The notes beneath the pieces are model-generated. The model was not told where the DNA came from. It saw only the letters and a list, made by a program, of their open reading frames with translations, and ran no database searches. A stretch of DNA of 64,000 nucleotides from an uncultured Bacteroidota bacterium. GTDB taxonomy: Bacteria > Bacteroidota > Bacteroidia > NS11-12g > UBA9320. A program made the translations under genes and the position numbers. The stretch covers positions 239,370 through 303,369 of the forward strand of contig CAKZLB010000016.1 of assembly GCA_937124965.1 (NCBI GenBank). Direction: 5' to 3'. This document shows positions 1-53,667 of this stretch, in pieces (the first letter of the stretch is position 1; each line of letters opens with the position of its first letter).

Positions 1-256
1 GATACTCTTCGCGTTTATCCATGTTTTTAAGTTCGTTATAGGCAGCAGCCAGCAGTCTATAAGCTTCAAACCTTTCCTCGGAATTCATATTTTCGCCGAC
101 ACAAGGTTCAAGTAGTGTTACGGCATCTTGAATTTTTCCACTTTCATATAATTTGTTCGCCTGATAAAGTGAATTGTCGCATTCTGTTTGTGCGTAAGAA
201 TAGCTTCCGATAAAAAGTATGCTAAATATGCCTATTAGGAGTTTTGTTATCTTCAT
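1..256 (-). CDS. TPR/beta-barrel outer-membrane protein, N-terminal part (cut by window edge)
   Basis: The first 85 codons are visible; the 3' part lies outside the window. The start is an ATG at 256-254, giving a signal peptide (MKITKLLIGIFSILF..., cleavage probably after AQ near residue 23) and then a TPR-like helical region with the motif YQANKLYESGKIQDAV. It closely parallels the start of the gene at 8474-9499, including two cysteines about 28 residues apart, so the missing part is inferred to be a beta-barrel. The start codon shares one base with the stop of the upstream gene (TAATG), so translation is probably coupled. It is the third gene of the NTPase-barrel-barrel operon. Function unknown; outer-membrane location is inferred. 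Confidence 0.75.
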   Translation of the reverse strand, partial: MKITKLLIGIFSILFIGSYSYAQTECDNSLYQANKLYESGKIQDAVTLLEPCVGENMNSEERFEAYRLLAAAYNELKNMDKREEY

Positions 257-1314
257 TATTTAACCACTTTATAGTTTAAGTATAGACTGTAACCAATACT
301 AGCTGAGTAATTATTCAAAACTATGTTATCGTCCAAGTAAAAGTATGAATAGAACAACTCATTGTATTGGTAACGCGTATCTTCATTTGTAATGTTTTGT
401 GAGGATCTAAAATAGTTTACCTGGGCAAATAGGAGGCCATTTTTGGTTGTGTAATTAACACCAACACCACCGGTTAAACCAAAATCCATTTTATTTCTTC
501 GATCAATAGAACTTACATTTTCTAACGAATATGATTCGTTGCTTGGATTGTTTTGTGCGAAAAAACTATTGTTACTAAATAAAAGTAAACCACCATAACC
601 ACCTAACTGAACAAATGGTTGAATACGGCTTTTGTGTGAAAAGGTGTACCGTGCACGTATAGGCACATGAAGGTAGGTCATGTTTTCTTCCATCCCAAGC
701 GACCAGTCTCCGAAAGAGTGATCGAGTTCAAATGCTTTCCTAGAAACCACCAAAGAAGTTTGAACTGAGAATGCTGAATTTATTTGGTATAGGGAGGAAA
801 TTCCAATTTGAAACTTACTCGATCCAGTGTACTTTTTTCCTTGATCACTGACTGTAAAAACATCATTCACTGTAGGAGCAGTAACGTTAGTCCCAAGAGA
901 TAATCCAACTCCGATACTAAATTTTGGAATTACCACAACATCATTGATTAATTGCACAAAATCGCTTGGCTCCTTTAAACTACTCGGTTTGTATTTTGGA
1001 TTAATTTCCATCATTTTGATAGCAGTTAGTCGCGCTTCTTCAACATCTTTGTTTGCTAATTGAGAAAGTGCAATTAAACGTAAACTCTTCCAACGAGTAT
1101 CTCTATCTGCCGAATCGGCGCAATAACTTAGATTTTTAATCACTTCGTTAAACTGTCCTAATTCATAAAGGCTTTTTGCTTCAATAATTTTTGAATCACA
1201 ATCTTGGCTATAGACCGTCGCTGGGTAAAATGAGGCGAATGATAGTAGGACCAGAGAGAAAGTTCTTAATAGCCAATGCAAATAGTTATTGTGTAATGAG
1301 TTCCTAATGTTCAT
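256..1314 (-). CDS. Outer-membrane beta-barrel protein with N-terminal TPR-like domain
   Basis: 352 residues. A signal peptide (about 1-36, ending VYSQ) is followed by a helical TPR-like segment (about 38-125, containing SLYELGQFNEVIKNL and a cysteine pair) and then an alternating, aromatic-rich C-terminal half (about 130-352) typical of PorT-like outer-membrane barrels. The terminal YKVVK matches its paralogue at 9496-10557, and the two are similar along their whole length. Its ATG overlaps the stop of the STAND NTPase gene (ATGA), so the two proteins are made together and probably work together. The TPR part should face the periplasm. No enzymatic motif is visible; the partner role is inferred from coupling only. 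Confidence 0.8.
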   Translation of the reverse strand: MNIRNSLHNNYLHWLLRTFSLVLLSFASFYPATVYSQDCDSKIIEAKSLYELGQFNEVIKNLSYCADSADRDTRWKSLRLIALSQLANKDVEEARLTAIKMMEINPKYKPSSLKEPSDFVQLINDVVVIPKFSIGVGLSLGTNVTAPTVNDVFTVSDQGKKYTGSSKFQIGISSLYQINSAFSVQTSLVVSRKAFELDHSFGDWSLGMEENMTYLHVPIRARYTFSHKSRIQPFVQLGGYGGLLLFSNNSFFAQNNPSNESYSLENVSSIDRRNKMDFGLTGGVGVNYTTKNGLLFAQVNYFRSSQNITNEDTRYQYNELFYSYFYLDDNIVLNNYSASIGYSLYLNYKVVK

Positions 1315-4300
1315 ATTGTTGGTACTGTTTTTCTGTAGGCTATGTCATGACCTACATATATACTCCATTCTTCTTGCGATAAGTTTCTTGATAATTTACT
1401 TTCTAAATATGAAATTATATCAGCTTGGTCAATCGGGAATTTGCGGATTGATTTATCTCTTCCACCTGAGAGTATTTCTTTACCATTTGAACTGAATGCG
1501 ATGTCTAGAACCCAATCGGTATTTTCATTATAAACCATAGGAGGCATATTCAAATCCGTAGTTTCATACAGCCGTACTTTTTTGTCAAGACATGCTGTTG
1601 CAAGTAGTGGTTTAGATGGGTGAAAACTTACTTGAGAAACTCCACTACCACGTGTATGACCAGAAATAGATTCTAAGCAATTGGGGTCGTCAACATGAAC
1701 CATACCGCAATACCCATTTCTAGTACCAAATGCCACCAAGGTGCGTGCTTTATTGGTACTGATTGAAGTAATGTCGCCTTTCCCAGGATCCAAAAATTCT
1801 ACTATCTCTCCATTGCTACTTAAATCTGCCTTATACACCTTTCCATCATTCCCCCCAATGAAAAGTATGTTTAGCTTGGTGAGGTAACACATACAAAGTG
1901 GTCTAAAGTTTAACTTAATTGTACGTACAATCTTACCAGTTTTTACATCAAGTATATTTACTGTACTATCTAGCGATCCAGATAAAATTTTACCATCTCC
2001 CCATTGCAAAGCAATAATCTCTTTACTGTGAACTTTGCTGAATGTTTTTATTGGTTGAATAAGAGATGTTGAATTATATACCAACACGTCGTAGTTATAA
2101 TTTGTAAATGCAAATTGATTCCCTTCATGATTGTAATAGACATTATCTAGAATACTCGAAAGAGGGGGTGATTTTGAAAGACTCTCCAACTTGTTGTCGT
2201 CAGAAACGACTATATATCCATCGTTGCTAACACTTACCACCTGATTATTTTGATTGGTCGAAATGGCATTTACGTAATCTGTGTGGTGTTTCGTCATATA
2301 TTCATTTGGGTCTTGATAGGCCCGTTTGGCAGCAACCAATGCTCCAAGCAACTCCATGTCGTTTGCTTTGCCGTTATACTCTCGATTCCATTTGTAACTC
2401 TGAATTGCAAGAAGAGCTTTTAGTTCCCGTTCGTCGCTGGAAGAAGCAGTCATTTTTGACTTGATCGCCAAGTTTTGAGCCAATGCAAGTAATCTCAACC
2501 TAGTGGCGTTTTGTTCAGAGGTTAGAGATATTTCCCGCAAACTATCCGCAATAATCTTTTGGCGTTCAGCTATCTGTCTATCATATTCTGCCCTACTTTT
2601 GGCTTCAATTGCAATGGCAGACTCTTTGTCAGCTAATGTTTTCTGCTTTTTAGCTTCTATGGCGCTCATTAACGCAAGACGTTTTTGGTTTTCAGCTTCC
2701 TTTTGCTGCTGCTGTGCCATTGCTTCTTGCTTTTTGGCTATAGCATAATTCTCTTCAGCGATACGTTTGTGTTTGTCTGCAAGATTTCGCTCTTCAATGG
2801 CACTTTGGGCATACATGTCTGAACTATTTCGTTCTTGAATTGCCCAAATAGACAACGCACTTAGAACTAACAAGACCAAAACTACAGAGACGTTCCTGAA
2901 TCTTCTTTTGCGCCTTTTGTCTGCATATATAAACTGCTTTTCCTGCTTACTTGCTTCAATAAAACGGATTGATGAATCAAATGAGTCGTTGTATTGCTCA
3001 GCCCATGCACTGTTTGGATTGTACTTTGAAATCCAATCAAGAGCTATTTGTAAATCAGGATCACGCCAAAGTCCAGCACGTTCCATTTCATATCCTTGAG
3101 CACTGTCGGTAATACGGGTATAAAGCACGGCCGACTCGGCTTCTTCGTCGACCCAATCACGCAGTCGATTCCATATTCGCATTAGACTCTCATGTGAAAT
3201 GTCAAGTATGCTATCGGCATTGAGTGGAGTTGTCGGAGGGGGCATTAAGAAACCTCGATCTCCACGTCTAAATATTTCAGCGACTTCGATTATATCTTTT
3301 ACAGGTTCACCACAAATTGCTGCAATTTTTTTTATTGATGTTGGTCTTCTTATGCCTCTATTGTCACTACTTTTAACGGTAACTGTTTGAAAAAGTATTT
3401 TAGCGATACGTCGTTGCTTGTCGTCTTTTAGCTCGCTATAAGCTTCCTCGGCATGATTTGACAGACCATTTTTCATTCCACCAGCCGAGTTGTAATGCGA
3501 TATGTCTAATGGTAGTCCTGTTTTTTCCTCTTTTTCCCATACCTCCCATGTTCTCATTAAAACATGTTGAAGAATAGGTAATTGATCAGGATCGTTTCCC
3601 ACTTCGTTTAAAAGTTGCTGCGACAATCTTGGAGAAATTGCAGCATCAGCGTATTCTATGGGGCCTGTAAAACTTGACTTTAACTGTTCGCGGCCCATTC
3701 TTGGGACTAGAAACTGACCATCGTTTATGGCTTCTGGCAAACCCATAAACTGGGCACAATCACCTAAAAAGTCAGATCTTAGGGTAATCATTACAAAAAT
3801 CGGTACGTCCTCTTGTTCTGATGCAGCTAATAAAAGCTGAACGAAATGGTTCGCACTTTCGTAAGATTTGTTATCTCCTTCGAGTTTGTGAAACCGAAAT
3901 AACTCTTCAAATTGGTCGACTAATATTAAGAGTTGGTTTCCTTTTTTTAATTGGGTTCTCAGAATTTGAATTAGGCCTAATTTGCTTTTCACTAGTAAGG
4001 CCTTGATTGAGTCAATACCTAAAGGAGAGCCGTTGTTTCTGTTGGATTCAAGACTAGATAGGCTTTCTGCTAGTTGATCAATTGGAGAGTTACCAGGTCT
4101 TAACGTGCATATCTCCCAATTTCCATCAGAGTTGATTAAGTCAGGTAATACGCCAGCTTTAACAAGCGAAGACTTACCACTACCGGAATTTCCAACAATG
4201 GAAACAAATCGATAGGTTTCTAGTTTTCGTAAAATTTCTGACGTGTGTGTTTCTCTTCCGAAAAATAGAGCGGACTCTTTTGCTTCAAATGGCCTAAGGC

Positions 4301-4328
4301 CTGGAAATGGATTATTGCGAGAACTCAC
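1311..4328 (-). CDS. STAND-type NTPase with membrane segment, helical stalk and WD40 propeller
   Basis: 1005 residues, GTG start at 4328. Visible domains: nSTAND1-type NTPase (signature FPGLRPFEAKESALFFGRE at about 8-26; Walker A GNSGSGKS at 46-53; Walker B LLILVDQFEELF at 133-144; the family motif HESLMRIWNRLRDW at about 379-392); one hydrophobic segment (about 479-497) preceded by KRRKRR, suggesting a cytoplasmic N-terminus; a charged, Gln/Glu/Lys/Ala-rich helical stretch (about 505-627); and WD40-like repeats (about 680-1005). STAND NTPases are signal-responsive molecular switches. If the single membrane segment is real, the stalk and propeller lie in the periplasm. The gene is coupled by ATGA to the barrel gene downstream and diverges from an adenylate cyclase 60 bp away. 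Ligand and output are unknown. Confidence 0.88.
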   Translation of the reverse strand: MSSRNNPFPGLRPFEAKESALFFGRETHTSEILRKLETYRFVSIVGNSGSGKSSLVKAGVLPDLINSDGNWEICTLRPGNSPIDQLAESLSSLESNRNNGSPLGIDSIKALLVKSKLGLIQILRTQLKKGNQLLILVDQFEELFRFHKLEGDNKSYESANHFVQLLLAASEQEDVPIFVMITLRSDFLGDCAQFMGLPEAINDGQFLVPRMGREQLKSSFTGPIEYADAAISPRLSQQLLNEVGNDPDQLPILQHVLMRTWEVWEKEEKTGLPLDISHYNSAGGMKNGLSNHAEEAYSELKDDKQRRIAKILFQTVTVKSSDNRGIRRPTSIKKIAAICGEPVKDIIEVAEIFRRGDRGFLMPPPTTPLNADSILDISHESLMRIWNRLRDWVDEEAESAVLYTRITDSAQGYEMERAGLWRDPDLQIALDWISKYNPNSAWAEQYNDSFDSSIRFIEASKQEKQFIYADKRRKRRFRNVSVVLVLLVLSALSIWAIQERNSSDMYAQSAIEERNLADKHKRIAEENYAIAKKQEAMAQQQQKEAENQKRLALMSAIEAKKQKTLADKESAIAIEAKSRAEYDRQIAERQKIIADSLREISLTSEQNATRLRLLALAQNLAIKSKMTASSSDERELKALLAIQSYKWNREYNGKANDMELLGALVAAKRAYQDPNEYMTKHHTDYVNAISTNQNNQVVSVSNDGYIVVSDDNKLESLSKSPPLSSILDNVYYNHEGNQFAFTNYNYDVLVYNSTSLIQPIKTFSKVHSKEIIALQWGDGKILSGSLDSTVNILDVKTGKIVRTIKLNFRPLCMCYLTKLNILFIGGNDGKVYKADLSSNGEIVEFLDPGKGDITSISTNKARTLVAFGTRNGYCGMVHVDDPNCLESISGHTRGSGVSQVSFHPSKPLLATACLDKKVRLYETTDLNMPPMVYNENTDWVLDIAFSSNGKEILSGGRDKSIRKFPIDQADIISYLESKLSRNLSQEEWSIYVGHDIAYRKTVPTI

Positions 4329-4388: not shown

Positions 4389-5864
4389 ATGAATATCTGG
4401 TTGTTGATTGCTTTAGGTGTTTCGCTTTTTGCGATAGTCGTACTTGTACGATATTCCTTGTTAAATAAAAAAATCAAAGAAGTGCTTTCGAAAATAGTAC
4501 TCGCCATGGATAGTCCTAGAGTGATGAAAGTTACATACACTGACGGGGGAAATCTTGGCAAGGTTGTAGACCAATTTAACAAACTTTCAAAAAAGTGTTT
4601 AGAATTACTGGATAGCAATCAAACGTTAGAAGATCATAAAAAAGAATCTGAAAAATTAACTGAAAAAGTGGATGAGTTTGAGAAATCAATGAACCAAACA
4701 ACGATGTTTACTGAGATTGGGAAAAAGATTACAGCTAACTTAAACATAAAAGAAATTATTAAAAATGTATATACCTACAGTAAATCCTCGATGAACGTTG
4801 ATGAAATGCAAGTTATGTTTATGAAAGCTGGAGAACCTATCCTAATTCATATCGACCATAATAATTTGGAGACAGAGGAACTTAACGCAGAAGGAATAAA
4901 AAAGAACCACTTAATGGCCTGGGTATTGAAAAATAAAAAGGAGGTAATGTTACAGGATGCTCCTTCGGATTACGCCCAATATGTCGATAAACCAGTTGTT
5001 TCAAAATCGAATAACAAAATCGGTTCCGTTATGTGTGTACCTATGAACATGCACAACGAAAGTATTGGGGCGATTGCAGTTTCAAGCACACAAACAGACG
5101 TTTACAACAAATATCATCTTGAATTTATTCGAACGTTAGGATCGTATTTGACAGTAGCACTTGATAATGCAAGCATTCATGATCAGCTGAACAACACAAA
5201 GCAAATCATTGAAGAAGAAAAAGGGAAATCTGAAAAGTTGCTTTTAAATATCTTACCTGAAGAAATTGCAGATGAATTGAAATTAAAAGGAGAAGCAGAA
5301 GCTAGATCATTCGAAAATGCGTCCATTTTATTCACAGATTTTAGAGACTTTACAAATGCATCGGAGAAAATGAGCGCCAAAGAACTTATCTCCGAACTAA
5401 ACGTATGTTTTATTGCTTTTGATGAGTTGTGCGAAAAGTATCAGGTAGAGAAAATCAAAACAATTGGAGATTCATTTATGGCGGCAGGAGGAATTCCAGT
5501 TGCATCCGAAGAGTCAACAAAGAATACAGTGTTACTCGCTTTAGATATGATTGCGTTTATTGACAAGAGAATTGCCGAACGAAAATCTGAAGGTAAAATA
5601 CCTTTTCAAATGCGGGTCGGTATTAATACAGGTTCTGTTGTTGCAGGTATTGTTGGGAAAAAGAAATTCCAGTACGACATTTGGGGTGATGCTGTTAATG
5701 TTGCTTCTCGTATGGAGAGTCACGGCGAAGTGGGTAAAGTCAATATTTCAAACCAAACGTATTCTGCGATTAAAGATGACACCGACTTTGTTTTTGAGCA
5801 CCGTGGTAAAATAGCGGCAAAAGGAAAAGGTGAAATAGATATGTATTTTGTGTCAAAAGTTTAA
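4389..5864 (+). CDS. Membrane-anchored GAF-domain class III adenylate cyclase
   Basis: 491 residues. An N-terminal membrane helix (about 3-25) is followed by a coiled linker, a GAF sensor domain (about 105-265), a second short helix (about 268-290) and a class III cyclase domain (about 300-490). The two metal aspartates are visible as D317 (ILFTDFRDF) and D361 (KTIGDS). K357 and D430 (QYDIWGD) are the adenine-recognition residues and N437/R441 (NVASR) the transition-state residues, so ATP rather than GTP is the expected substrate and cAMP the product. The catalytic set looks complete. It diverges from the STAND NTPase gene with only 60 bp between them. Two Crp/Fnr-family genes lie elsewhere in the window, but no link can be shown. 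Confidence 0.92.
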   Translation: MNIWLLIALGVSLFAIVVLVRYSLLNKKIKEVLSKIVLAMDSPRVMKVTYTDGGNLGKVVDQFNKLSKKCLELLDSNQTLEDHKKESEKLTEKVDEFEKSMNQTTMFTEIGKKITANLNIKEIIKNVYTYSKSSMNVDEMQVMFMKAGEPILIHIDHNNLETEELNAEGIKKNHLMAWVLKNKKEVMLQDAPSDYAQYVDKPVVSKSNNKIGSVMCVPMNMHNESIGAIAVSSTQTDVYNKYHLEFIRTLGSYLTVALDNASIHDQLNNTKQIIEEEKGKSEKLLLNILPEEIADELKLKGEAEARSFENASILFTDFRDFTNASEKMSAKELISELNVCFIAFDELCEKYQVEKIKTIGDSFMAAGGIPVASEESTKNTVLLALDMIAFIDKRIAERKSEGKIPFQMRVGINTGSVVAGIVGKKKFQYDIWGDAVNVASRMESHGEVGKVNISNQTYSAIKDDTDFVFEHRGKIAAKGKGEIDMYFVSKV

Positions 5865-6000
5865 GTGTTGACAGAACCGCTGACTATATTGAGAGGATGC
5901 GTAAAATGTGTTTGGATGTAAAGCAATAAGACTTGACAAAAAATTAGTCAACAGGTTAAAATGTAATTTTGAAATAAGTGGTTTTTTAGATAATAAACGA

Positions 6001-7197
6001 ATGAAGTTAAAATTTACGGTCATTGTTACCTTTTGTATATCCCTTCTCATGATTGGTTGTGGTGACGAAGTGACAATGAAGTCTAGGTCAAGCACTGTTT
6101 TTTACCACGAAACTGGTGGAGAGAAGCTTGAGAATGTAATATCTCTTAACGACGGAGGTTTTCTTTATTTTGGGAGTTCACTTAATCGAGGGTTTGCTAT
6201 GAGAGTAAGTGCTGATGGGACTAAGCTGTGGTACAAGATCGTTGAAGCAAGTGTTTCTGAAATATTTGAAGGAGCGGTTGAGCTACCTGGCGGCAAGTTT
6301 ATTTTGGTAGGCACAACAGAGGCAGATAGTGAAAGTTTAGATAAGGAGGCTGGCACGGTTGTTCAATTAAGTGGTTCAGGAGAAGTTGAATGGAATAAAG
6401 TGTATTCTGGCGATGATGATCAAAGTCTGAAAGCGGTTACAATCACTCCCGAAAATCATATTGTTGCAACTGGTTATGTTATACCTTCAGATGCTGATAC
6501 ATGGATATTGAAACTCAATATGGATGGAGCCGTGATTTGGTCTAGAGACTATACGATGTTAAGTCCATGGCACGATGTTGGGACGTCAATAATTGTTACA
6601 TCTAAGGGGAATTATGCGGTCTGTGGGATATCAAGTCCAAATTCAACCGCAGTTGGAAATGGAAATATGGATACCTATTTGCTGGCCGTAGATCCAAATA
6701 CTGCGGAAATTGCTTGGGGAAGACCTCATAGAAGTTTTCCAAATAGTGATTACAATTGGAGATACCCCAAAGTGGTTGAGGTAAGTAATGGTTTTATGTG
6801 GGCTAACTCAATATATGATCAAGATTCAATACTTTACATTCAACTGGTGAAAACGGATTTAGGTGGTGTTGCACAATTTGATAAGAGGTATTATGGACTT
6901 GGTTCCGCTGAGTTCGGAGGAATACAAAAAATCGGAAATGATGAAATTATTATCAACGGGAATTCTAGAGAAATATCATCTGCAGTAAAGACTGGAAACT
7001 CAATGGTTTTACGTATTAATGCTGCTGGAGAGGAGTTGTGGAGTGCGTATCATGGAGAAAACTCAAATCTTGAAACGTGCAAAGGGACAAGAGCGACACC
7101 AACAGGGTTTGTACATGCAGGGAACTCGCTAGACTCTAAAGGTGTTAATACAATGATGCTATATAGAACCGATAAAAACGGAAATTTGTTAGAGTAA
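6001..7197 (+). CDS. Lipoprotein with beta-propeller-like repeats
   Basis: 398 residues from the ATG at 6001. An in-frame upstream ATG exists at 5908, but the 6001 start places a clean lipoprotein signal (MKLKFTVIVTFCIS..., lipobox LMIGC) at the N-terminus. The rest carries repeats of about 50 residues of the type GGF..G......D..LLK.D..G...W, the pattern of quinoprotein-like or delta-60 propellers common in Bacteroidota surface lipoproteins. It ends in TDKNGNLLE. It precedes a paralogue by 36 bp, and both probably form a unit with the cyclase upstream or have their own promoter. Substrate unknown. Confidence 0.75.
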   Translation: MKLKFTVIVTFCISLLMIGCGDEVTMKSRSSTVFYHETGGEKLENVISLNDGGFLYFGSSLNRGFAMRVSADGTKLWYKIVEASVSEIFEGAVELPGGKFILVGTTEADSESLDKEAGTVVQLSGSGEVEWNKVYSGDDDQSLKAVTITPENHIVATGYVIPSDADTWILKLNMDGAVIWSRDYTMLSPWHDVGTSIIVTSKGNYAVCGISSPNSTAVGNGNMDTYLLAVDPNTAEIAWGRPHRSFPNSDYNWRYPKVVEVSNGFMWANSIYDQDSILYIQLVKTDLGGVAQFDKRYYGLGSAEFGGIQKIGNDEIIINGNSREISSAVKTGNSMVLRINAAGEELWSAYHGENSNLETCKGTRATPTGFVHAGNSLDSKGVNTMMLYRTDKNGNLLE

Positions 7198-7233
7198 CAA
7201 ATAAACCAGGATTGACGACATAATTAGGATATA

Positions 7234-8460
7234 ATGAATGCATTAAACAAAGGAATATTTATTTCAATCCTTTTATTCGCAATGTCTTGCGAGGAGGTTA
7301 CGGAAGTGAACAAGCACGACATAAAGCAAACTTATTTTTTTAAGTCGTATGGGAGTTCATATGAAAGTTTCGGTAGATATGTTGATGAAATAAACGGTGG
7401 AGACATTCTTATAGCGGGAGTTGGACGTAAAGGTACCGCTACTGATAATAATACGCTAAGTATAAGGCGTGTCGATTCTCATGGTAATACGGTTTGGGAG
7501 AAAGACATCGAGACCAACGAATATTATTTCTGTAATGGCATGCGAATGTCTAATGGAGATTATGTATTTAATAGTGTATATGAATCATCTGAAATTATTA
7601 GAATTAGCCCTGATGGCGAAGTGATTTACCATAGACCTATGCTTCAATCTATGAACAATAATTTGGGTTATGGAATTCCAATAGAAAATGAAAATGGCAA
7701 CTTGCTTGTTTCGTTTACAAACGGTTTTGGTTTAGGAGGGAATTCATCAAATTTTATCTACACTATTGATAAAGATGGAGCAGTAATAGGTAGCACAAAA
7801 TATAATGATGCTCAGTTTGGGGGCAAGATTACTGATTTTAAAGTGTTAGCTTTTAAAGAAAATGCCTATTGGCTAACTGGGACGCTATATGAGTCTCCAT
7901 TCACTGGCTGGGGTAATCCTCAAAAAACGTTTGTGGCTAAGTTTGAACAGGGTGCTCCTCAAAAAGTCTTTATTAAAGACGCTGGTAATTCAAAAGAGCG
8001 GGTATGCCGTGTAGGAGTTTTTTCTTCTGATGATGGAGCTGTAGTTGTTTCAAGTAAAACTTCAGAGCTTCATGATGGCTATCCATTACCTCAAACCTTT
8101 TTTGAAGTAACGAAACTAGACGAGAATCTGGAATTATTATGGGAGAAAAAAATTGAATTGGGGGTTTTGTCCATTGAGCCATTATCAATGAATGAAAATA
8201 GTGCAGGGGAATATGTTATTTCTGGACATTGTGCACTAGGAAACTCAAGTGGTCGTCAGGCTTTTGTTGTTAAACTAAATACTTCAGGTGAAATTACCTT
8301 TTCAAAAATATTTGACTTAGGGGAATCAATTGAAGTGCAATATGGAATGCAGACTATTTCAGGAGATTATTTGTTTACAGGAGAGTCGCCAGGATTTGGC
8401 AACACAATTGAACAAACAAATATCGTTCTGCTTAAAACCGATAAAAACGGGAACAGATAA
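7234..8460 (+). CDS. Lipoprotein with beta-propeller-like repeats, paralogue of the preceding gene
   Basis: 408 residues. The N-terminus is a lipoprotein signal with the cysteine in LLFAMSC (about residue 19). The body holds repeats of the form NGDY.F....GE..W and the C-terminus reads LLKTDKNGNR, nearly the same as the end of the 6001-7197 protein, so the two are tandem duplicates that have diverged. It is convergent with the barrel gene at 8474-9499, with only 13 bp between stop codons, so any terminator must lie inside coding sequence. No catalytic motif is visible; a structural or ligand-binding surface role is the most one can infer. Confidence 0.73.
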   Translation: MNALNKGIFISILLFAMSCEEVTEVNKHDIKQTYFFKSYGSSYESFGRYVDEINGGDILIAGVGRKGTATDNNTLSIRRVDSHGNTVWEKDIETNEYYFCNGMRMSNGDYVFNSVYESSEIIRISPDGEVIYHRPMLQSMNNNLGYGIPIENENGNLLVSFTNGFGLGGNSSNFIYTIDKDGAVIGSTKYNDAQFGGKITDFKVLAFKENAYWLTGTLYESPFTGWGNPQKTFVAKFEQGAPQKVFIKDAGNSKERVCRVGVFSSDDGAVVVSSKTSELHDGYPLPQTFFEVTKLDENLELLWEKKIELGVLSIEPLSMNENSAGEYVISGHCALGNSSGRQAFVVKLNTSGEITFSKIFDLGESIEVQYGMQTISGDYLFTGESPGFGNTIEQTNIVLLKTDKNGNR

Positions 8461-8473
8461 TTCTTGCTATCAG

Positions 8474-9499
8474 TTATTTACTGATTTTGTAAGCCACAGG
8501 TAAAGAGAAGGTTATGTTGAGTGTCATCAATTGTGGCTTAATATCATCGTTAATATATTTTGTTCGAAAGATAAATTCTGAATCAGTAACTCGTTTATCC
8601 TTTAGTACCGTTGTGTTTGTGTAGGCTGTGAATCCCCAGTCCAATTTTATTAGTGCACCACGGTCATTTACATTAAAAACTAGTCCCAGTTTTGCGCCTA
8701 CGTTTGGCATCAATTTGTTACGTTCTAAAGTGGCGTCTTTACTTTGTTGATCTATCGATTTCGGAGAAAGACGTTCTGTTTTAACATTGACCTTAGACAT
8801 ATTCAATATTCCGAGTCCAAAATCGATGCCACCGAAAGCACTCAAGTTTTTTTTGAGTGAGATATACCTCAATCCACCGAAAGCAACGTTATAAGTGTTC
8901 ATTAATTCATTATAGTTTTTCTTCCAGTTTCCTTTGTCAATCATTTCGTGTTTAATGCTTAGTCCTTGCACAGATAGGCCAAGGGTTAAGGAGGTCTTTT
9001 CAAACAGATTGTAATCTAAATTCAGACCGAATTGATACCCTACAGCAGGTAAGTATTTTTGGGTAAAGTCGACTGGAGAATAACTCTCGCTAATAATTGG
9101 ATTGTTAATGTTGCCGCCAATTTTAACACCAACTTGCAAAAGTGGTCTTATGGTGTATTGATTTATAGCACTAGTGATTTCTTTAGAATCGTTGTTTGGG
9201 GATTTTTGATAGTTAGGTGTTGTCTTTAACAACAACAATAAATATTTGTCACGTTCTTCGTTCTTCTTTAGGTCTGAGAATGCCGAAGCAAGTAATTTAT
9301 ACGCCTCAGAAATTTCTTCCTTACTCATTTCGTCGCTAATGCACGACTCAAGACGAGTGATTGCCTCCTGAATTTTACCAGTTTCGTATAGCTTGTTCGC
9401 TTGATATAGAGCATTTTTACAGTCGTTGTCACCATGTACGTTAAAAGCAAATGCAAAAAAACTAATACTGATGAGGATTATTTTTAGACGCTTCATCAT
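8474..9499 (-). CDS. TPR/beta-barrel outer-membrane protein (complete paralogue of the gene at the left edge)
   Basis: 341 residues. Signal peptide about 1-23; TPR-like N-terminal part with YQANKLYETGKIQEAITRL and a cysteine pair; a C-terminal half rich in alternating polar and hydrophobic residues, as in outer-membrane barrels. Two ATG codons are adjacent (9499 and 9496); the first overlaps the stop of the upstream gene as ATGA, indicating coupled translation. It gives the full-length form of the truncated gene at 1-256, so the two loci hold the same ordered pair of genes. No NTPase gene accompanies this copy. Function unknown. Confidence 0.78.
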   Translation of the reverse strand: MMKRLKIILISISFFAFAFNVHGDNDCKNALYQANKLYETGKIQEAITRLESCISDEMSKEEISEAYKLLASAFSDLKKNEERDKYLLLLLKTTPNYQKSPNNDSKEITSAINQYTIRPLLQVGVKIGGNINNPIISESYSPVDFTQKYLPAVGYQFGLNLDYNLFEKTSLTLGLSVQGLSIKHEMIDKGNWKKNYNELMNTYNVAFGGLRYISLKKNLSAFGGIDFGLGILNMSKVNVKTERLSPKSIDQQSKDATLERNKLMPNVGAKLGLVFNVNDRGALIKLDWGFTAYTNTTVLKDKRVTDSEFIFRTKYINDDIKPQLMTLNITFSLPVAYKISK

Positions 9500-10557
9500 T
9501 TAACGACTTTATAATTTAAATAAAAACTGTAACCAATGTTGAATGAATAGTTATGAAGTAGAATATTGTCATCTAAATAAAAATAAGAGTAAAACAACTG
9601 ATTGTAGTTATATCGTTCTGATTCATTCGTGATGTTTTGAAAAGATCTAAAAAAGTTTCCCTCAAAAAATATTTGTCCTTTTTGCAATTTATAAACGATA
9701 CCAGCGCCACCTGTTAATCCTAAATCAATTCTCTCCCTTCGGTCTAATGAGCTGACATTTTCAAGTGCGTATTCTTGATTACTTGGTGTGTGATTGGAAA
9801 AGAAGCTACTGTTTCCAAATATTAAATAACTGCCATAACCACCAAACTGTACGTAAGGTTTGATTTTAGAGGTTAAATCAAAGGTGTACCTTCCGTTGAT
9901 GGGCAGCGTTATATAGGTTAGTTCTTCAGTCATTGTTAAAGACCAATTCGTAAACGAATGATCCAATTCTAATTCCTTTCTAAGCGCAATGATGGAAACG
10001 TTTAAACCAATATGACTATTGAATTGGTAGAGTCCTGATATTCCACCTTGCAAAGAACCTTTACCCATATATTTTTTTGATTGGTCGGTAACCGAAAATG
10101 CGTTAATAACTGATGGTGTAGTTTGATTGGTTCCCGCGGCAAAACCAAAACCTAAACTTAGTTTTGGTATAACCTTGATACTTTTCAATAACGTCACAAA
10201 TTCCTTTGGGTCTTTTAGGGAGCTTGGCTTGTATCTCGGATTAATTTCCATAAACTTAATTGCCGTTTTTCGAGCTAACTCATTGTCTTTATTTGCCAAC
10301 TGGGCAAGGGCGATTAGCCTAAGGCTTTTCCATCTTATTGTTTCGTTGTTTAACGAGTCAGAGCAAGTTTTAAGAAGTTGTATGACCTTGTTAAATTGCC
10401 CAACTTCATAAAGGCCAGATGCTTGAGCAATTTTGTCCTCGCAATTTTGAGCAGAAATGGTAGGTATTCCCAAGGATAATGCCAAAGCTGAACAAGCAAT
10501 AAATCGTTTAAATATAGTTTTCAAATTGACGGAAACTTTTCTGTTATTTTTGAGCAT
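9496..10557 (-). CDS. Outer-membrane beta-barrel protein with TPR-like N-terminus (paralogue of 256-1314)
   Basis: 353 residues from the ATG at 10557; an in-frame GTG six bases upstream (10563) is an alternative start. Signal peptide about 1-37 (ending TISAQ), TPR-like part to about 125, and a barrel part ending FYLNYKVVK. It shares with the 256-1314 protein long similar blocks (RWKSLRLIALAQLANKD, INPRYKPSSLK, YNQLFYSYFYLDDNI), so one pair arose by duplication of the other. It is first in a two-gene unit coupled by ATGA to 8474-9499. The 226 bp upstream to dcd contain no gene I can see. Confidence 0.8.
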   Translation of the reverse strand: MLKNNRKVSVNLKTIFKRFIACSALALSLGIPTISAQNCEDKIAQASGLYEVGQFNKVIQLLKTCSDSLNNETIRWKSLRLIALAQLANKDNELARKTAIKFMEINPRYKPSSLKDPKEFVTLLKSIKVIPKLSLGFGFAAGTNQTTPSVINAFSVTDQSKKYMGKGSLQGGISGLYQFNSHIGLNVSIIALRKELELDHSFTNWSLTMTEELTYITLPINGRYTFDLTSKIKPYVQFGGYGSYLIFGNSSFFSNHTPSNQEYALENVSSLDRRERIDLGLTGGAGIVYKLQKGQIFFEGNFFRSFQNITNESERYNYNQLFYSYFYLDDNILLHNYSFNIGYSFYLNYKVVK

Positions 10558-10783
10558 TGTCACGGATAATTTAATCGGTCAAATAGAACTAAAAAGGCTT
10601 TTTATTAATACAATGATTCGTAAAGAGCCAGTAGTAAATTGACACAGTTTCGATTAGCCGCCAGAGAACGACAAGATAAGAGTTAGAAGCCACTAGTTTT
10701 GAAAACTTAATATGGCCAATTTAGGTAAATTTTTCCGATTGTTACAAATCCTTGACAATGCAATAAGCACTCAAGGTCTGGAA

Positions 10784-49807: not shown

Positions 49808-50545
49808 ATGGATCAAAACACACAAACCGAAAACACACTTTCTGAGTTTACAACGAATGGTTTTTCAGAAAACCCTTTGCCAACAATTGCTATGGCTACT
49901 GTTGCGGGTATGTCTTTAATGTTTATCACCATATCATTAAATGCGTCAATAATTACTACAATGGTCGGGTTGTTTGCGGGTATTTTACTGGTCTATGGAT
50001 TCAAAGTGGCGTCAATTACGTACACGTTAACGGATGAGGGTGTACGACAACGTATTCGTAAATTTTTACCCTATAAAATCAATAAAAAAGAAAGTGTACG
50101 CTTTATCGCATGGAGTGATATTTCATCGTTTAAGAATGATTGGGACCGAAATAGGAGTGGGGCAGATTATGAGTTCCTTAAGATTTATTTAACTAAATCG
50201 CCAAAGGAGATTTGGATTACCAATCAGAGTGATGTTCAAGGGTTTAATCACTTTAAGGAGTCATTTATGCAATCGGTCGAAGTGGGTAAATCAAAACCAG
50301 TATCTCAAGCAAATAGCGCCAATACAGTAAAGCAAAACACATCTCACATTAAACAACGAAAAAGTTTTTATGATACGTGGTTTGCAAAATTCTTAACCAT
50401 TTTTTTTGGCCTTTGGGTGATCGCAATTTTCATATTTGCAGAAATAAACGGAATACGGTTTAGTACGCAACTTAAATTTCAGGCCGTAATGGTGCCGGGT
50501 ACCGTCTACATGTTTTATCGTGTTTTCATTAAAAAGAAAAATTAA
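49808..50545 (+). CDS. Membrane protein of unknown function
   Basis: 245 residues from the ATG at 49808 (a TTG at 49796 is in frame). Two N-terminal helices (about 27-70), a soluble segment (about 75-160) with the look of a bacterial PH-like domain (LTDEGVRQRI...WSDISSFKND...YEFLKIYLTKSPKE), and two C-terminal helices. Similar small proteins with a PH-like insert are common and mostly unnamed. It is convergent with the 50542 gene, the stop codons overlapping by four bases. Confidence 0.7.
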   Translation: MDQNTQTENTLSEFTTNGFSENPLPTIAMATVAGMSLMFITISLNASIITTMVGLFAGILLVYGFKVASITYTLTDEGVRQRIRKFLPYKINKKESVRFIAWSDISSFKNDWDRNRSGADYEFLKIYLTKSPKEIWITNQSDVQGFNHFKESFMQSVEVGKSKPVSQANSANTVKQNTSHIKQRKSFYDTWFAKFLTIFFGLWVIAIFIFAEINGIRFSTQLKFQAVMVPGTVYMFYRVFIKKKN

Positions 50546-53500
50546 TATAAGGGTAACAAACTAGTTGTCTCTTCTCTCACTTGCTCGCCATTTACATAAT
50601 GGTACTGTTTGATGTTTATCTTTTGAGTAACATAACCTATTTGGTCAACATCTGGAAAGTTGTAAGCGTCAACAGCACCTGCACGACAGAACTTTTCGTA
50701 ATACGGTACAGCTTCTAAATCGCCTTCGACCCACATACCATTTTTTAAACCGTTTTCATCAAAACTTCCCATTTTTTCTAATCTTCCGTTAGGGTCATAA
50801 TACTTCCAAAGACCGAAAGGTTTATTGTTTTTGAGATGTCCTTCGATGCGTATTTCACCGTTGTTGTGGTATTCTTTTATAGGACCAGATCCGTTAGAGA
50901 TTAGTTGCTCACCAGCTTCATTAAAGAAGCTCAAGTAGTGGAGGTTTTCAAACGACACCTGCATTTCTTGATCGCATTTAAATCTATACTCATTATATTT
51001 TACAAGTCCTGTAAGCAACTTTTTGCCATTTGGGTACCACATCTTCACCTTCCCATAATACTTAATGGAATCTTTTGTAATTGGATTAATGTGCCAGCCG
51101 GTGTCGTACGAAATCTCTTTGTATAATTGTCCGTTTAAGTCCCAATACTTCCATGTTCCTACTTTTTGTCGTCTCTCAATCCGACCTTCAGAGGCCATTT
51201 GACCGTTTTTATAGAAATACTGGTAATCGGCTGTTTGATTTGATTTAAATTCGATAATTTTCGTTTCATCAAGCAATTGACTTCCATTTGAATGACTACC
51301 ATACGTCGACATCGGCCAACGTCCACTTTGTCCTGTAACGGGCTGCAAAACCCAGCCAGAATAACTCACGCTATCAGATAGTTCATAGTTTACTTTTGCT
51401 TTCAAAATACCTTCTTTAAAATAATAAGAGGCAGTGTCTACTAAGTAGCCATGGTGCAGTTGCGCTTTTACAGAAACAGGACAGGTAAGGTTCCCTCTAA
51501 AATATTCTCCATGAGGATACCCTTTGATAAATTGAACCGATTGTCCAACGACTTCAGGTGCAACAAAACTTTGAAATAAGCCATGTAATGTGTCCATTAC
51601 AAAAGTTGTTTTGTAGGCAATCTGATCATTGTAACGCTTATCACTTCCATAGTATCCAAGGTGCATTTCTAAACCATGTTGCTTGCCTTTATAATATTCC
51701 ATAAAGGTTCTATAATTTTTGTACAAACCATGACGTTGTCCCCTTACATAATATCCTTTATATCCGGATTCATCATTGCCCTCACCATTTTTTAGACCGT
51801 TAACGTACTCTGCCACGTATGAATAACCTTGTTCAATTTTATCAGGTATTCCGTCTGAATATTCTAACTCGTTTTCATCGTAAATGTATTCCCTGTATGA
51901 GACAATTTTCAATGAGGTGTCTTTAAACACAATGCCATTTATCTTATATCTATTGACCTTTACCTTAGCTTTATGATTGAAGTGTTTTTTGTATTTATAT
52001 CGACCTTTAAGTACTACATCACCACTATAATTTTGGTTAAAACCATATAAAACATGCGTTAACGTATCCTTTAATTCGTTTATAATATCTGGCTCAATGG
52101 CGTCTAGGTAAGAACTTTTTTTAAGGTAATGGTCTTTGTCGTAAGTCGGCTTTTTAAATATATAAGAATGTTCAATGGCAGTGATATGGTTTTTATCAAA
52201 TTCAGTGAGTGTAATGCGTATTGAATCTTCTGATGCAAATCGAATCTTTTTTGTTGCAACGAGTGTTTTCGGTACATCTTTATACCACGTACTTTCAAAT
52301 ATTTTATCAGTATGTAAAAGGTTGTAACCGACGGTCTTATTTTTTTTGTAAAACGACTTTTTACAAAGAATTAAACCGCGTTTGTTTTTGTGTTTTTCTG
52401 ATAAGTAGTACGGAGAAGCGACATATCGCGTGGTATCTCCATTTTTATCAAAGTCCACCGATAGTAATCTTCCTGAGCCCTGATAAGATATCCAAGTAGA
52501 AACTATTTTACTGGATTTAGGGTCGTATTCTTTTGTGATTAAAAATTCTGAATTGGAAGAGTCTAGTTGCATAGATTTTAACAACCGCCCTTTCTTGTCA
52601 AACTCTTTTATTGGTTCTACTAACGTATCTTTTCTCAGGTCATAGGAAATTCTCAACTGCCCATTGCTGTAAAATTCTTCATAGGCAGATTTGTTTCCAT
52701 AATAGTAATCTTTTATAAAAGATTGAAAATGAGCCCATCTTGGAGTCGCTTTGTGTCTAACCACAATTTTAGATTCGTCAGTATAGAAATCATAATGGTC
52801 AAATTTGACTTTATAAAACTTCCTAGAAATAGAACCATCATCATCATACTGAACAGTAGTGTTGCCACCAAAAGAATCTAGTTTACTGACCGTTTTGCTA
52901 ATTCGACCATTATCAAAGCTTTTTTTAGCAATGTTGTCTTTAAATGAGTCACTTTCCCAATGCCGAATGTTCCCCTTCTTGTCGTATTGTTTATAGTCTA
53001 TTGACGACCCTTGGTCATAGGTTGTTGTCGAGTATATTTGACTAGGCTTCTTTGTGTAATACTGTTTAAATATGCCAACAGCTTCGTCGTTTTTATACTG
53101 CCCAATTCTCCTGAGTTCTCCTTTGTAAAACCGTGCATAGTTACCGTGGAGTAAACCTTCAGAATAATTTATTTGTACTTTGTGATTTTTTCGTATTCGG
53201 TTCCACTCTCCAGACTTTAGGTCACTTTTGTAATACCCAGTTTGTAATACTTGTTGCCCTTTTCCAAAGTCGTACCACGTTGCTTGCCCCTCTTTTTTAT
53301 TATTTACGATACTAAATGTTGCAGCAACCAACGTCGTGTCTTCATGAGTATATATAGGTTGACGTGTTTCTTTGTCGTACTTTAATTCTCGCTTTTCGTA
53401 ATAGATGATGTAATCACCATTGTCTAAGTTAAATGGATTGAAAGGTAATAAAAGTTCGTCGGTAGAGTAACTTTCCCAAAGGCCTTTTTTTATGGCCTTT

Positions 53501-53667
53501 TTTGTTAAACGACGACTGTAGGAATAATATCCTTCTGGTTCTATGGGTAACCGTACAGGATACACCTTATAAAGTTTCCCATTAAACTCGGTGGTTGAAA
53601 TTTTAATTTGAGAAAAAGATGTTACACTCAGAAGTGATAACAAAACTAGGGTCAGAAATCGTGGCAT
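50542..53667 (-). CDS. Giant secreted protein with MORN-variant (YwqK-like) repeats
   Basis: 1041 residues. Signal peptide about 1-19 (ending TSFSQ). Throughout are repeats of about 23 residues of the form (G).(W).(Y)...G.L...G.Y.....G.W..Y, for example KKEGQATWYDFGKGQQVLQTG, GLLHGNYARFYKGELRRIGQ, YHNNGEIRIEGHLKNNKPFG and KYYDPNGRLEKMGSFDENG. This is the MORN-variant repeat of YwqK-like proteins, which some databases list as toxin-antitoxin components; a protein this large is more likely structural or surface associated. No T9SS sorting domain was seen. A single long exported beta-hairpin ladder is the expected fold. Confidence 0.78.
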   Translation of the reverse strand: MPRFLTLVLLSLLSVTSFSQIKISTTEFNGKLYKVYPVRLPIEPEGYYSYSRRLTKKAIKKGLWESYSTDELLLPFNPFNLDNGDYIIYYEKRELKYDKETRQPIYTHEDTTLVAATFSIVNNKKEGQATWYDFGKGQQVLQTGYYKSDLKSGEWNRIRKNHKVQINYSEGLLHGNYARFYKGELRRIGQYKNDEAVGIFKQYYTKKPSQIYSTTTYDQGSSIDYKQYDKKGNIRHWESDSFKDNIAKKSFDNGRISKTVSKLDSFGGNTTVQYDDDGSISRKFYKVKFDHYDFYTDESKIVVRHKATPRWAHFQSFIKDYYYGNKSAYEEFYSNGQLRISYDLRKDTLVEPIKEFDKKGRLLKSMQLDSSNSEFLITKEYDPKSSKIVSTWISYQGSGRLLSVDFDKNGDTTRYVASPYYLSEKHKNKRGLILCKKSFYKKNKTVGYNLLHTDKIFESTWYKDVPKTLVATKKIRFASEDSIRITLTEFDKNHITAIEHSYIFKKPTYDKDHYLKKSSYLDAIEPDIINELKDTLTHVLYGFNQNYSGDVVLKGRYKYKKHFNHKAKVKVNRYKINGIVFKDTSLKIVSYREYIYDENELEYSDGIPDKIEQGYSYVAEYVNGLKNGEGNDESGYKGYYVRGQRHGLYKNYRTFMEYYKGKQHGLEMHLGYYGSDKRYNDQIAYKTTFVMDTLHGLFQSFVAPEVVGQSVQFIKGYPHGEYFRGNLTCPVSVKAQLHHGYLVDTASYYFKEGILKAKVNYELSDSVSYSGWVLQPVTGQSGRWPMSTYGSHSNGSQLLDETKIIEFKSNQTADYQYFYKNGQMASEGRIERRQKVGTWKYWDLNGQLYKEISYDTGWHINPITKDSIKYYGKVKMWYPNGKKLLTGLVKYNEYRFKCDQEMQVSFENLHYLSFFNEAGEQLISNGSGPIKEYHNNGEIRIEGHLKNNKPFGLWKYYDPNGRLEKMGSFDENGLKNGMWVEGDLEAVPYYEKFCRAGAVDAYNFPDVDQIGYVTQKINIKQYHYVNGEQVREETTSLLPLY

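What the first reader, a model, noticed from the sequence alone, without database searches (positions are those of the whole stretch)
1..4328. Possible envelope-spanning STAND NTPase module with coupled outer-membrane barrels
The NTPase has one membrane segment with a basic stretch before it, followed by a helical region of about 120 residues and a WD40 propeller. A helix of that length would reach roughly 18 nm, near the depth of the periplasm. The next two genes, translationally coupled (ATGA, then TAATG), encode barrels with periplasmic TPR-like heads. This suggests a cytoplasmic switch that contacts the outer membrane through its propeller and a TPR head. STAND proteins are known as signal switches; the trans-envelope reading is my inference.
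Basis: partly seen in the sequence, partly recalled or inferred. Interest (0 to 1): 0.7.

Follow-up and report, generated by a model that had tools for sequence, protein, structure and literature searches.

The report
Envelope-spanning NTPase switch with barrels
In Bacteroidota a predicted NTPase switch protein, with one predicted membrane anchor and a rod segment whose length changes in steps of seven residues, is encoded next to predicted outer-membrane barrel proteins that share one small head domain, so the two would likely carry signals from the cell surface to the inside.

Summary
The 1005-aa protein is an nSTAND1 NTPase with one hydrophobic segment at 479-497 (8 K/R before, 1 after), a predicted helical rod and WD40 propeller; its operon partners are predicted 8-stranded barrels with a TPR-like head. 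New: (1) of the 80 best-matching relatives in a genome scan, 78 have a TPR-headed barrel within three genes; the others are a contig end and a fragment without detected head. (2) The same head sits on two barrel folds, a small OmpA/OmpW-like one and a TonB-receptor type with plug, so the head rather than the barrel is what the NTPase keeps. (3) The rod carries Ala at nearly every seventh residue and its length differs by whole heptads in 202 of 204 proteins: a register-locked rod of about 17-25 nm if straight. I propose a STAND switch: a surface event is likely passed by the TPR head to the propeller and along the rod to the cytoplasmic NTPase. Against: barrels also occur without the NTPase nearby, four rod-type NTPases (three genomes, one plasmid) have no head beside them, and topology and contact are predictions only.

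The parts
1311..4328 (-). nSTAND1-TM-rod-WD40 NTPase, 1005 aa
   Evidence: PF20703 E 5.7e-92; P-loop and DQFEE columns invariant in 83 sequences
3081..4310 (-). nSTAND1 NTPase domain, residues 7-416 (predicted cytoplasmic)
2838..2918 (-). basic stretch 471-478 and hydrophobic segment 479-497
   Evidence: hydropathy 2.41, K/R 8 before and 1 after
2451..2837 (-). heptad-alanine rod, residues 498-626
   Evidence: Ala at seventh positions, length steps of 7; helix 528-626 in AF2
1434..2273 (-). predicted WD40 propeller, residues 686-965
256..1314 (-). barrel A, 352 aa: signal-peptide-like helix, TPR-like head, barrel
   Evidence: PF13568 E 9e-15; AF2 pLDDT 83; fold matches
931..1203 (-). TPR-like head of barrel A, residues 38-128, with the two near-invariant cysteines
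1..256 (-). barrel B, first 85 of 338 aa, rest outside the window
   Evidence: L015:10610-11626
4389..5864 (+). class III nucleotide cyclase with GAF, divergent neighbour found beside the NTPase in relatives of this clade
   Evidence: PF00211 E 6e-58; within three ORFs of the NTPase in 11 of 36 stretches
5908..7197 (+). lipoprotein A of the second cassette (start probably internal)
   Evidence: homologues beside barrel pairs
7234..8460 (+). lipoprotein B of the second cassette
8474..9499 (-). barrel B paralogue, no NTPase beside it
9496..10563 (-). barrel A paralogue, 59% identical to barrel A, no NTPase beside it

Best explanation
The cluster likely encodes an envelope-spanning signal switch: a predicted inner-membrane nSTAND1 NTPase whose heptad rod is predicted to cross the periplasm and would bring its WD40 propeller under the TPR head of an outer-membrane barrel. 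Shown by sequence: domain order, one hydrophobic segment with K/R-rich N-terminal side, the heptad rod and its length steps, conserved adjacency to TPR-headed barrels, and one head on two barrel types. Predicted: periplasmic propeller, helix along the whole rod, head below the outer membrane. Inferred: head and propeller bind; a surface event at the barrel and its lipoproteins (in some relatives also a giant T9SS-type protein) changes that contact; the change passes through the rod and lets the cytoplasmic NTPase switch, as ligands of the WD40 part do for APAF-1; the output is made in trans by the neighbouring enzyme, a class III cyclase in this clade, a TIR-like/DUF4062 protein in others.
For: Adjacency: 78 of the 80 relatives kept out of 571; of the 78, 76 immediate neighbours, 77 same strand, median gap 5 bases in the 75 that are both. 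Four of the 80 have contig lengths already met; without them 74 of 76. Co-occurrence in a phylum draw of 395: head in 8 of 14 genomes with the NTPase (own genome included) and in 24 of 381 without (one search scored only two candidates a genome). Of 32 NTPase genomes 24 have heads. Barrel swap with the head retained. Rod steps of 7: 83 of 83; 202 of 204, with 41 length changes by parsimony on one FastTree tree. K/R bias 78 of 79. Head TPR-like by sequence and fold. Head distances follow the propeller more than the head's own barrel (partial r 0.40 against 0.19, 46 loci).
Against: No complex was modelled. Head genes without a linked NTPase: 4 of 6 in this genome, all 6 in G009, both in G600, all 3 in G694, plus G001 and G007. 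In G011 the barrels are convergent with the NTPase. A Persicobacter plasmid relative has the heptad rod (four heptads shorter, in register) and a transporter neighbour but no head in the 14.9 kb fetched. G071 has a long helix-like stretch after its segment, outside the register, and no head. The K/R bias is also in comparators with short linkers, so it marks the family, not this group. Propellers hold more cysteine (1.03 per 100) than the NTPase part (0.66), no sign of a periplasmic place. Head-propeller correlation does not clearly exceed head-lipoprotein (0.32), head-transporter (0.34) or barrel-propeller (0.31). The barrel swap is one event, so longer rods in that clade are one observation.
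Confidence: 0.57

Rival explanations
1. The rod and propeller transmit force or energy outward: the NTPase works on the barrel like TonB or TolA, opening or moving it, rather than sensing it.
For: TonB-receptor type partners with a plug; inner-membrane force transducers that reach the outer membrane exist (TonB/TolA; PMC12204202, start of abstract only).
Against: STAND NTPases are known as switches, not motors (recalled); small 8-stranded barrels have no plug to pull. I did not search for ExbB/D- or TolQ/R-like genes.
Confidence: 0.13
2. An envelope-guarding conflict system: the barrel and its surface partners are bait for phage or toxins, and the NTPase triggers a TIR-like or cyclic-nucleotide suicide response.
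For: nSTAND1 is described in conflict systems (PMC8195603, passages); DUF4062 proteins are NADases in phage defence (PMC13174449, abstract and passages); the cyclase scores against Pycsar cyclase models (E 5.8e-12).
Against: The NTPase has only a weak PADLOC match (5.7e-4, over 26 residues); of two TIR-like proteins tested one has none and one a weak one (6.5e-4); in many of the rod-type TIR rows printed the residues look degenerate, by eye; lipoproteins and a T9SS-type surface protein fit adhesion or nutrient sensing as well.
Confidence: 0.15
3. Only co-regulation: NTPase and barrels share an operon but never touch, and the propeller stays in the cytoplasm.
For: Barrel pairs without the NTPase nearby, rod-type NTPases without a head nearby; no direct contact data.
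Against: Head kept across a barrel swap, tight adjacency, K/R bias.
Confidence: 0.12

Closest known systems
TonB-dependent transducer / anti-sigma cell-surface signalling (FecA-FecR, FoxA-FoxR)
   Same: Outer-membrane barrel with an extra N-terminal periplasmic domain that meets the C-terminal part of a membrane-bound regulator (PMC11637429, abstract and outline).
   Different: Here the head is TPR-like, the regulator is a STAND NTPase with rod and propeller, no sigma/anti-sigma pair was noticed next door, and the barrel is usually a small one.
STAND NTPases with WD40 sensors (APAF-1; bacterial nSTAND1 proteins)
   Same: P-loop STAND domain with a C-terminal WD40 part; relatives in Caballeronia, Streptomyces and Nostoc also have one hydrophobic segment after it.
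   Different: Those three have a short linker after the segment, by eye; here a heptad rod of about periplasm length and an outer-membrane partner next door.
TonB/TolA periplasm-spanning helices
   Same: Inner-membrane anchor, long extended part, contact with outer-membrane proteins (recalled).
   Different: No TonB or TolA model among the 25 Pfam families shown for the NTPase; NTP-dependent switch rather than proton-driven motor (inferred).

Membership tests
nSTAND1 NTPase (PF20703) | match over the curated cut-off | tested here: met
   309.7 bits, cut-off 27.1
nSTAND1 NTPase (PF20703) | intact P-loop and acidic Walker B | tested here: met
   G46, G51 K52 S53 and D138 Q F E E142 invariant in 83 sequences; motif names recalled
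nSTAND1 NTPase (PF20703) | nucleotide-dependent switching | not testable with these tools
   needs a biochemical assay
OMP_b-brl_2 outer-membrane barrels (PF13568) | match over the curated cut-off | tested here: met
   barrel A 55.6 bits, cut-off 27; barrel B 20.6 and its paralogue 22.9 are below it
TPR domain | paired helices alike in sequence and fold to TPR | tested here: met
TonB-dependent transducer cell-surface signalling | STN signalling domain on the receptor | tested here: not met
   no STN match in barrel A, barrel B or the TonB-type relative L035:4487-7156
TonB-dependent transducer cell-surface signalling | sigma / anti-sigma pair next door | tested here: inconclusive
   none noticed among the ORFs listed, of which only some were run against Pfam; relatives were not scanned for it
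known anti-phage defence systems (PADLOC) | strong model match of the NTPase | tested here: inconclusive
   best 5.7e-4 over 26 residues

The most novel reading that the evidence does not exclude
A new class of bacterial surface receptor: a STAND NTPase, the switch type of apoptosomes and plant immune receptors, that reads the outer surface directly by a heptad-ruled rod and a propeller docked on TPR-headed outer-membrane barrels, with interchangeable barrels outside and interchangeable outputs (cyclase or TIR-like/DUF4062) inside.
Probability: 0.43. Interest if true: 0.9.

Novelty: new variant of a known kind. Interest (0 to 1): 0.76.

Why it matters
Cytoplasmic STAND sensors are well known; one that reaches across the envelope would give this switch type a direct view of the outer surface. 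It would be a periplasm-crossing route beside TonB/TolA, two-component systems and anti-sigma signalling, and the heptad steps make the rod a natural ruler that can be tested by adding or removing residues. Carriers with strain names, each with the head beside the NTPase, include Marivirga atlantica, Chryseolinea lacunae, Flammeovirga sp. SJP92, Fulvivirga kasyanovii and Sediminibacterium goheungense.

Tried and rejected
First genome-contig scan with the single protein found no relative; the scan with alignment A1 did. P/G-free run length as a rod measure was too crude, because single glycines break it, and a regex for the post-rod motif was noisy and missed many proteins; anchored alignment replaced both. 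Longer rods in the TonB-receptor type looked like a geometric fit, but the type is one clade (support 0.48), so it is one event. Cysteine counts gave no support for a periplasmic propeller. Mirror-tree: head-propeller exceeds head-barrel in 99% of 300 bootstraps, barrel-propeller in 85%, head-lipoprotein in 81%: weak. A cNMP-binding transporter as receiver of the cyclase product was considered for this genome; G000 has no homologue at 1e-10, and 1 of 7 cyclase-clade genomes has one, weak. Literature: 'nSTAND1' is in 2 of the held papers, and the passages seen do not describe an outer-membrane link; the listings showed no description of this operon; listings are partial and most subscription papers are not held.

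Rows dropped: A1 holds the window protein and 82 of the 119 other listed homologues. In one search the anchors were kept by 114 of 120 listed proteins, 68 of 79 named-set proteins (one of the 80 has a split NTPase frame and was left out) and 25 of 30 locus proteins. Before the tree P0087 (a longer chimera), L049 and L050 (no rod) were set aside; L035 and L036 (171) were kept and are the 2 of 204 that miss. Five plasmid comparators were fetched of 100 records; four were read, the fifth (L184) has only a 545-aa frame. Mirror-tree loci: 64, 46 (those with all genes). TIR rows: 25 of the named set and 9 others printed of 56 aligned.

Full report
What is there. The minus-strand operon at the left edge of the window encodes an nSTAND1 NTPase (1311-4328, 1005 aa; PF20703 E 5.7e-92) followed by two outer-membrane-type barrels; the second runs off the window and was read from the genome contig. 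ATGA and TAATG overlaps are as described. One hydrophobic segment, 479-497, follows KRRKRRFR. AF2 with 83 sequences gives mean pLDDT 88.8, a helix 528-626 and a propeller 686-965; 491-570 is at or below 55.

Conservation. The NTPase occurs at E 1e-60 in 14 of 395 phylum genomes and 20 of 395 class genomes, own genome included (two candidates scored a genome). In 36 stretches with the NTPase, 24 have a head within four ORFs; head seeds came from this set, so it is partly circular. The scan of named genomes is the better test: the best 80 of 571 relatives have a TPR-headed barrel within three genes in 78. L166 ends 54 bases after the NTPase; L112 has a 226-aa barrel-like gene without a detected head. 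Four of the 80 have contig lengths met before (40821, 88859, 48490, 85368). The 80 are the top of a similarity ranking, so more distant nSTAND1 proteins are not represented.

One head, two barrels. In 17 of 97 loci of the tree set the head is fused to a TonB-receptor-type protein of about 850-895 aa (one, L167, is cut by a contig end) instead of the small barrel; a plug was shown by Pfam in the one tested, the others follow by similarity and length. The swap is a single change on the NTPase tree (clade support 0.48). That the NTPase keeps the head while the barrel changes is the strongest comparative hint that the head is its contact.

The rod. In 83 aligned proteins alanine is in over 60% at 13 of the 14 seventh positions from 496 to 587 (503 is the exception), and the stretch A496 to A617 has 115, 122, 129, 136 or 143 residues (3, 30, 37, 11 and 2 proteins), always a multiple of seven apart. 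On a wider set, which contains these, 202 of 204 anchored proteins obey this, with 41 length changes by parsimony on one tree. Position a is Ala in 90%; position d is mostly Gln, Glu, Ala or Asn, so this is no classic leucine core. DNA repeats of 21 bases could supply such steps, but the register would still have to be kept. Relative to the window protein (129 residues, about 19 nm) the set spans about 115-164 residues, 17-25 nm as a straight helix.

Controls and exceptions. NTPases of five genomes of one family (f20) show no such rod, by eye, and no head in the genome; G071 (a long helix-like stretch out of register) and G576 also lack heads. Of the 25 other NTPase genomes, 24 have a head somewhere; the missing one is 60% complete with the NTPase at a contig end. 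In three of the 24 (G009, G694, G600) no head lies beside the NTPase. Caballeronia, Streptomyces and Nostoc relatives have a short linker. Persicobacter, a Bacteroidota plasmid, has a rod in register, four heptads shorter, and a transporter neighbour but no head within 6 kb: the rod can exist without a linked head. Heads without the NTPase occur in 24 of 381 genomes, a part of them weak matches.

The rest of the system. A class III cyclase lies within three ORFs of the NTPase in 11 of the 36 stretches (own, L033, L034, L087-L094), and lipoprotein pairs accompany several barrel pairs. In the 80 named loci, within four ORFs: an MFS-like transporter in 63, a TIR-like gene upstream in 52, a lipoprotein-sized gene with a signal-like cysteine next to the barrel in 58, the TonB type in 11, the cyclase in 2; transporter, TIR, small barrel and lipoprotein together in 41; a further frame over 1000 aa downstream in 34. 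Contig ends lower these counts. HEAT and cNMP-binding domains were shown in single transporters. Two giants from other loci read whole (3393 and 5125 aa) end in a T9SS sorting domain, and the first 1600 residues of one hold PKD-like repeats. This points to the cell surface as the sensed side. The transporter was not found in this genome.

How it likely works. Surface event, barrel and lipoprotein, TPR head, propeller, rod, NTPase, neighbouring enzyme. Each arrow is inferred. The nearest functional analogue is cell-surface signalling by FecA/FecR-type pairs (PMC11637429, abstract and outline), of which this is not a member: no STN domain was found. Disulfide-linked outer-membrane partners in Bacteroidota gliding (PMC12635249, abstract and outline) are a reminder that cysteines in such heads could also bond to a partner.

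Verdict. Observation confirmed; interpretation supported by comparative evidence; topology and contact need the bench.

Noticed in passing
window 5908-10563 and L015:8095-12684: Tandem duplication of a cassette of two lipoproteins convergent with two TPR-headed barrels; only one copy has the NTPase.
   Followed up: partly
L016:15165-19129 (contig C5): A third barrel pair follows a SUMF1-type lipoprotein that matches GldJ/GldK models below their cut-offs.
   Followed up: partly
L040:4695-7847, L046:10573-13608 and others: Large MFS-like membrane proteins with HEAT repeats, one with a cNMP-binding domain, near the NTPase in 63 of 80 named loci; function unknown.
   Followed up: partly
L186:1316-11497, L187:1538-16915: Giant proteins with a T9SS sorting tail follow the lipoprotein in two loci (PKD-like repeats found in the first).
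   Followed up: partly
window 4389-5864: Class III cyclase with GAF beside the NTPase in 11 of 36 stretches; it scores against Pycsar cyclase models.
   Followed up: partly
L185:2807-9006: Persicobacter plasmid: transporter and rod-type NTPase beside genes annotated as a contractile injection system, no TPR-headed barrel.
   Followed up: partly
window 50542-53667: 1041-aa protein with a signal-peptide-like start and many repeats that resemble MORN/YwqK type by eye.
   Followed up: no
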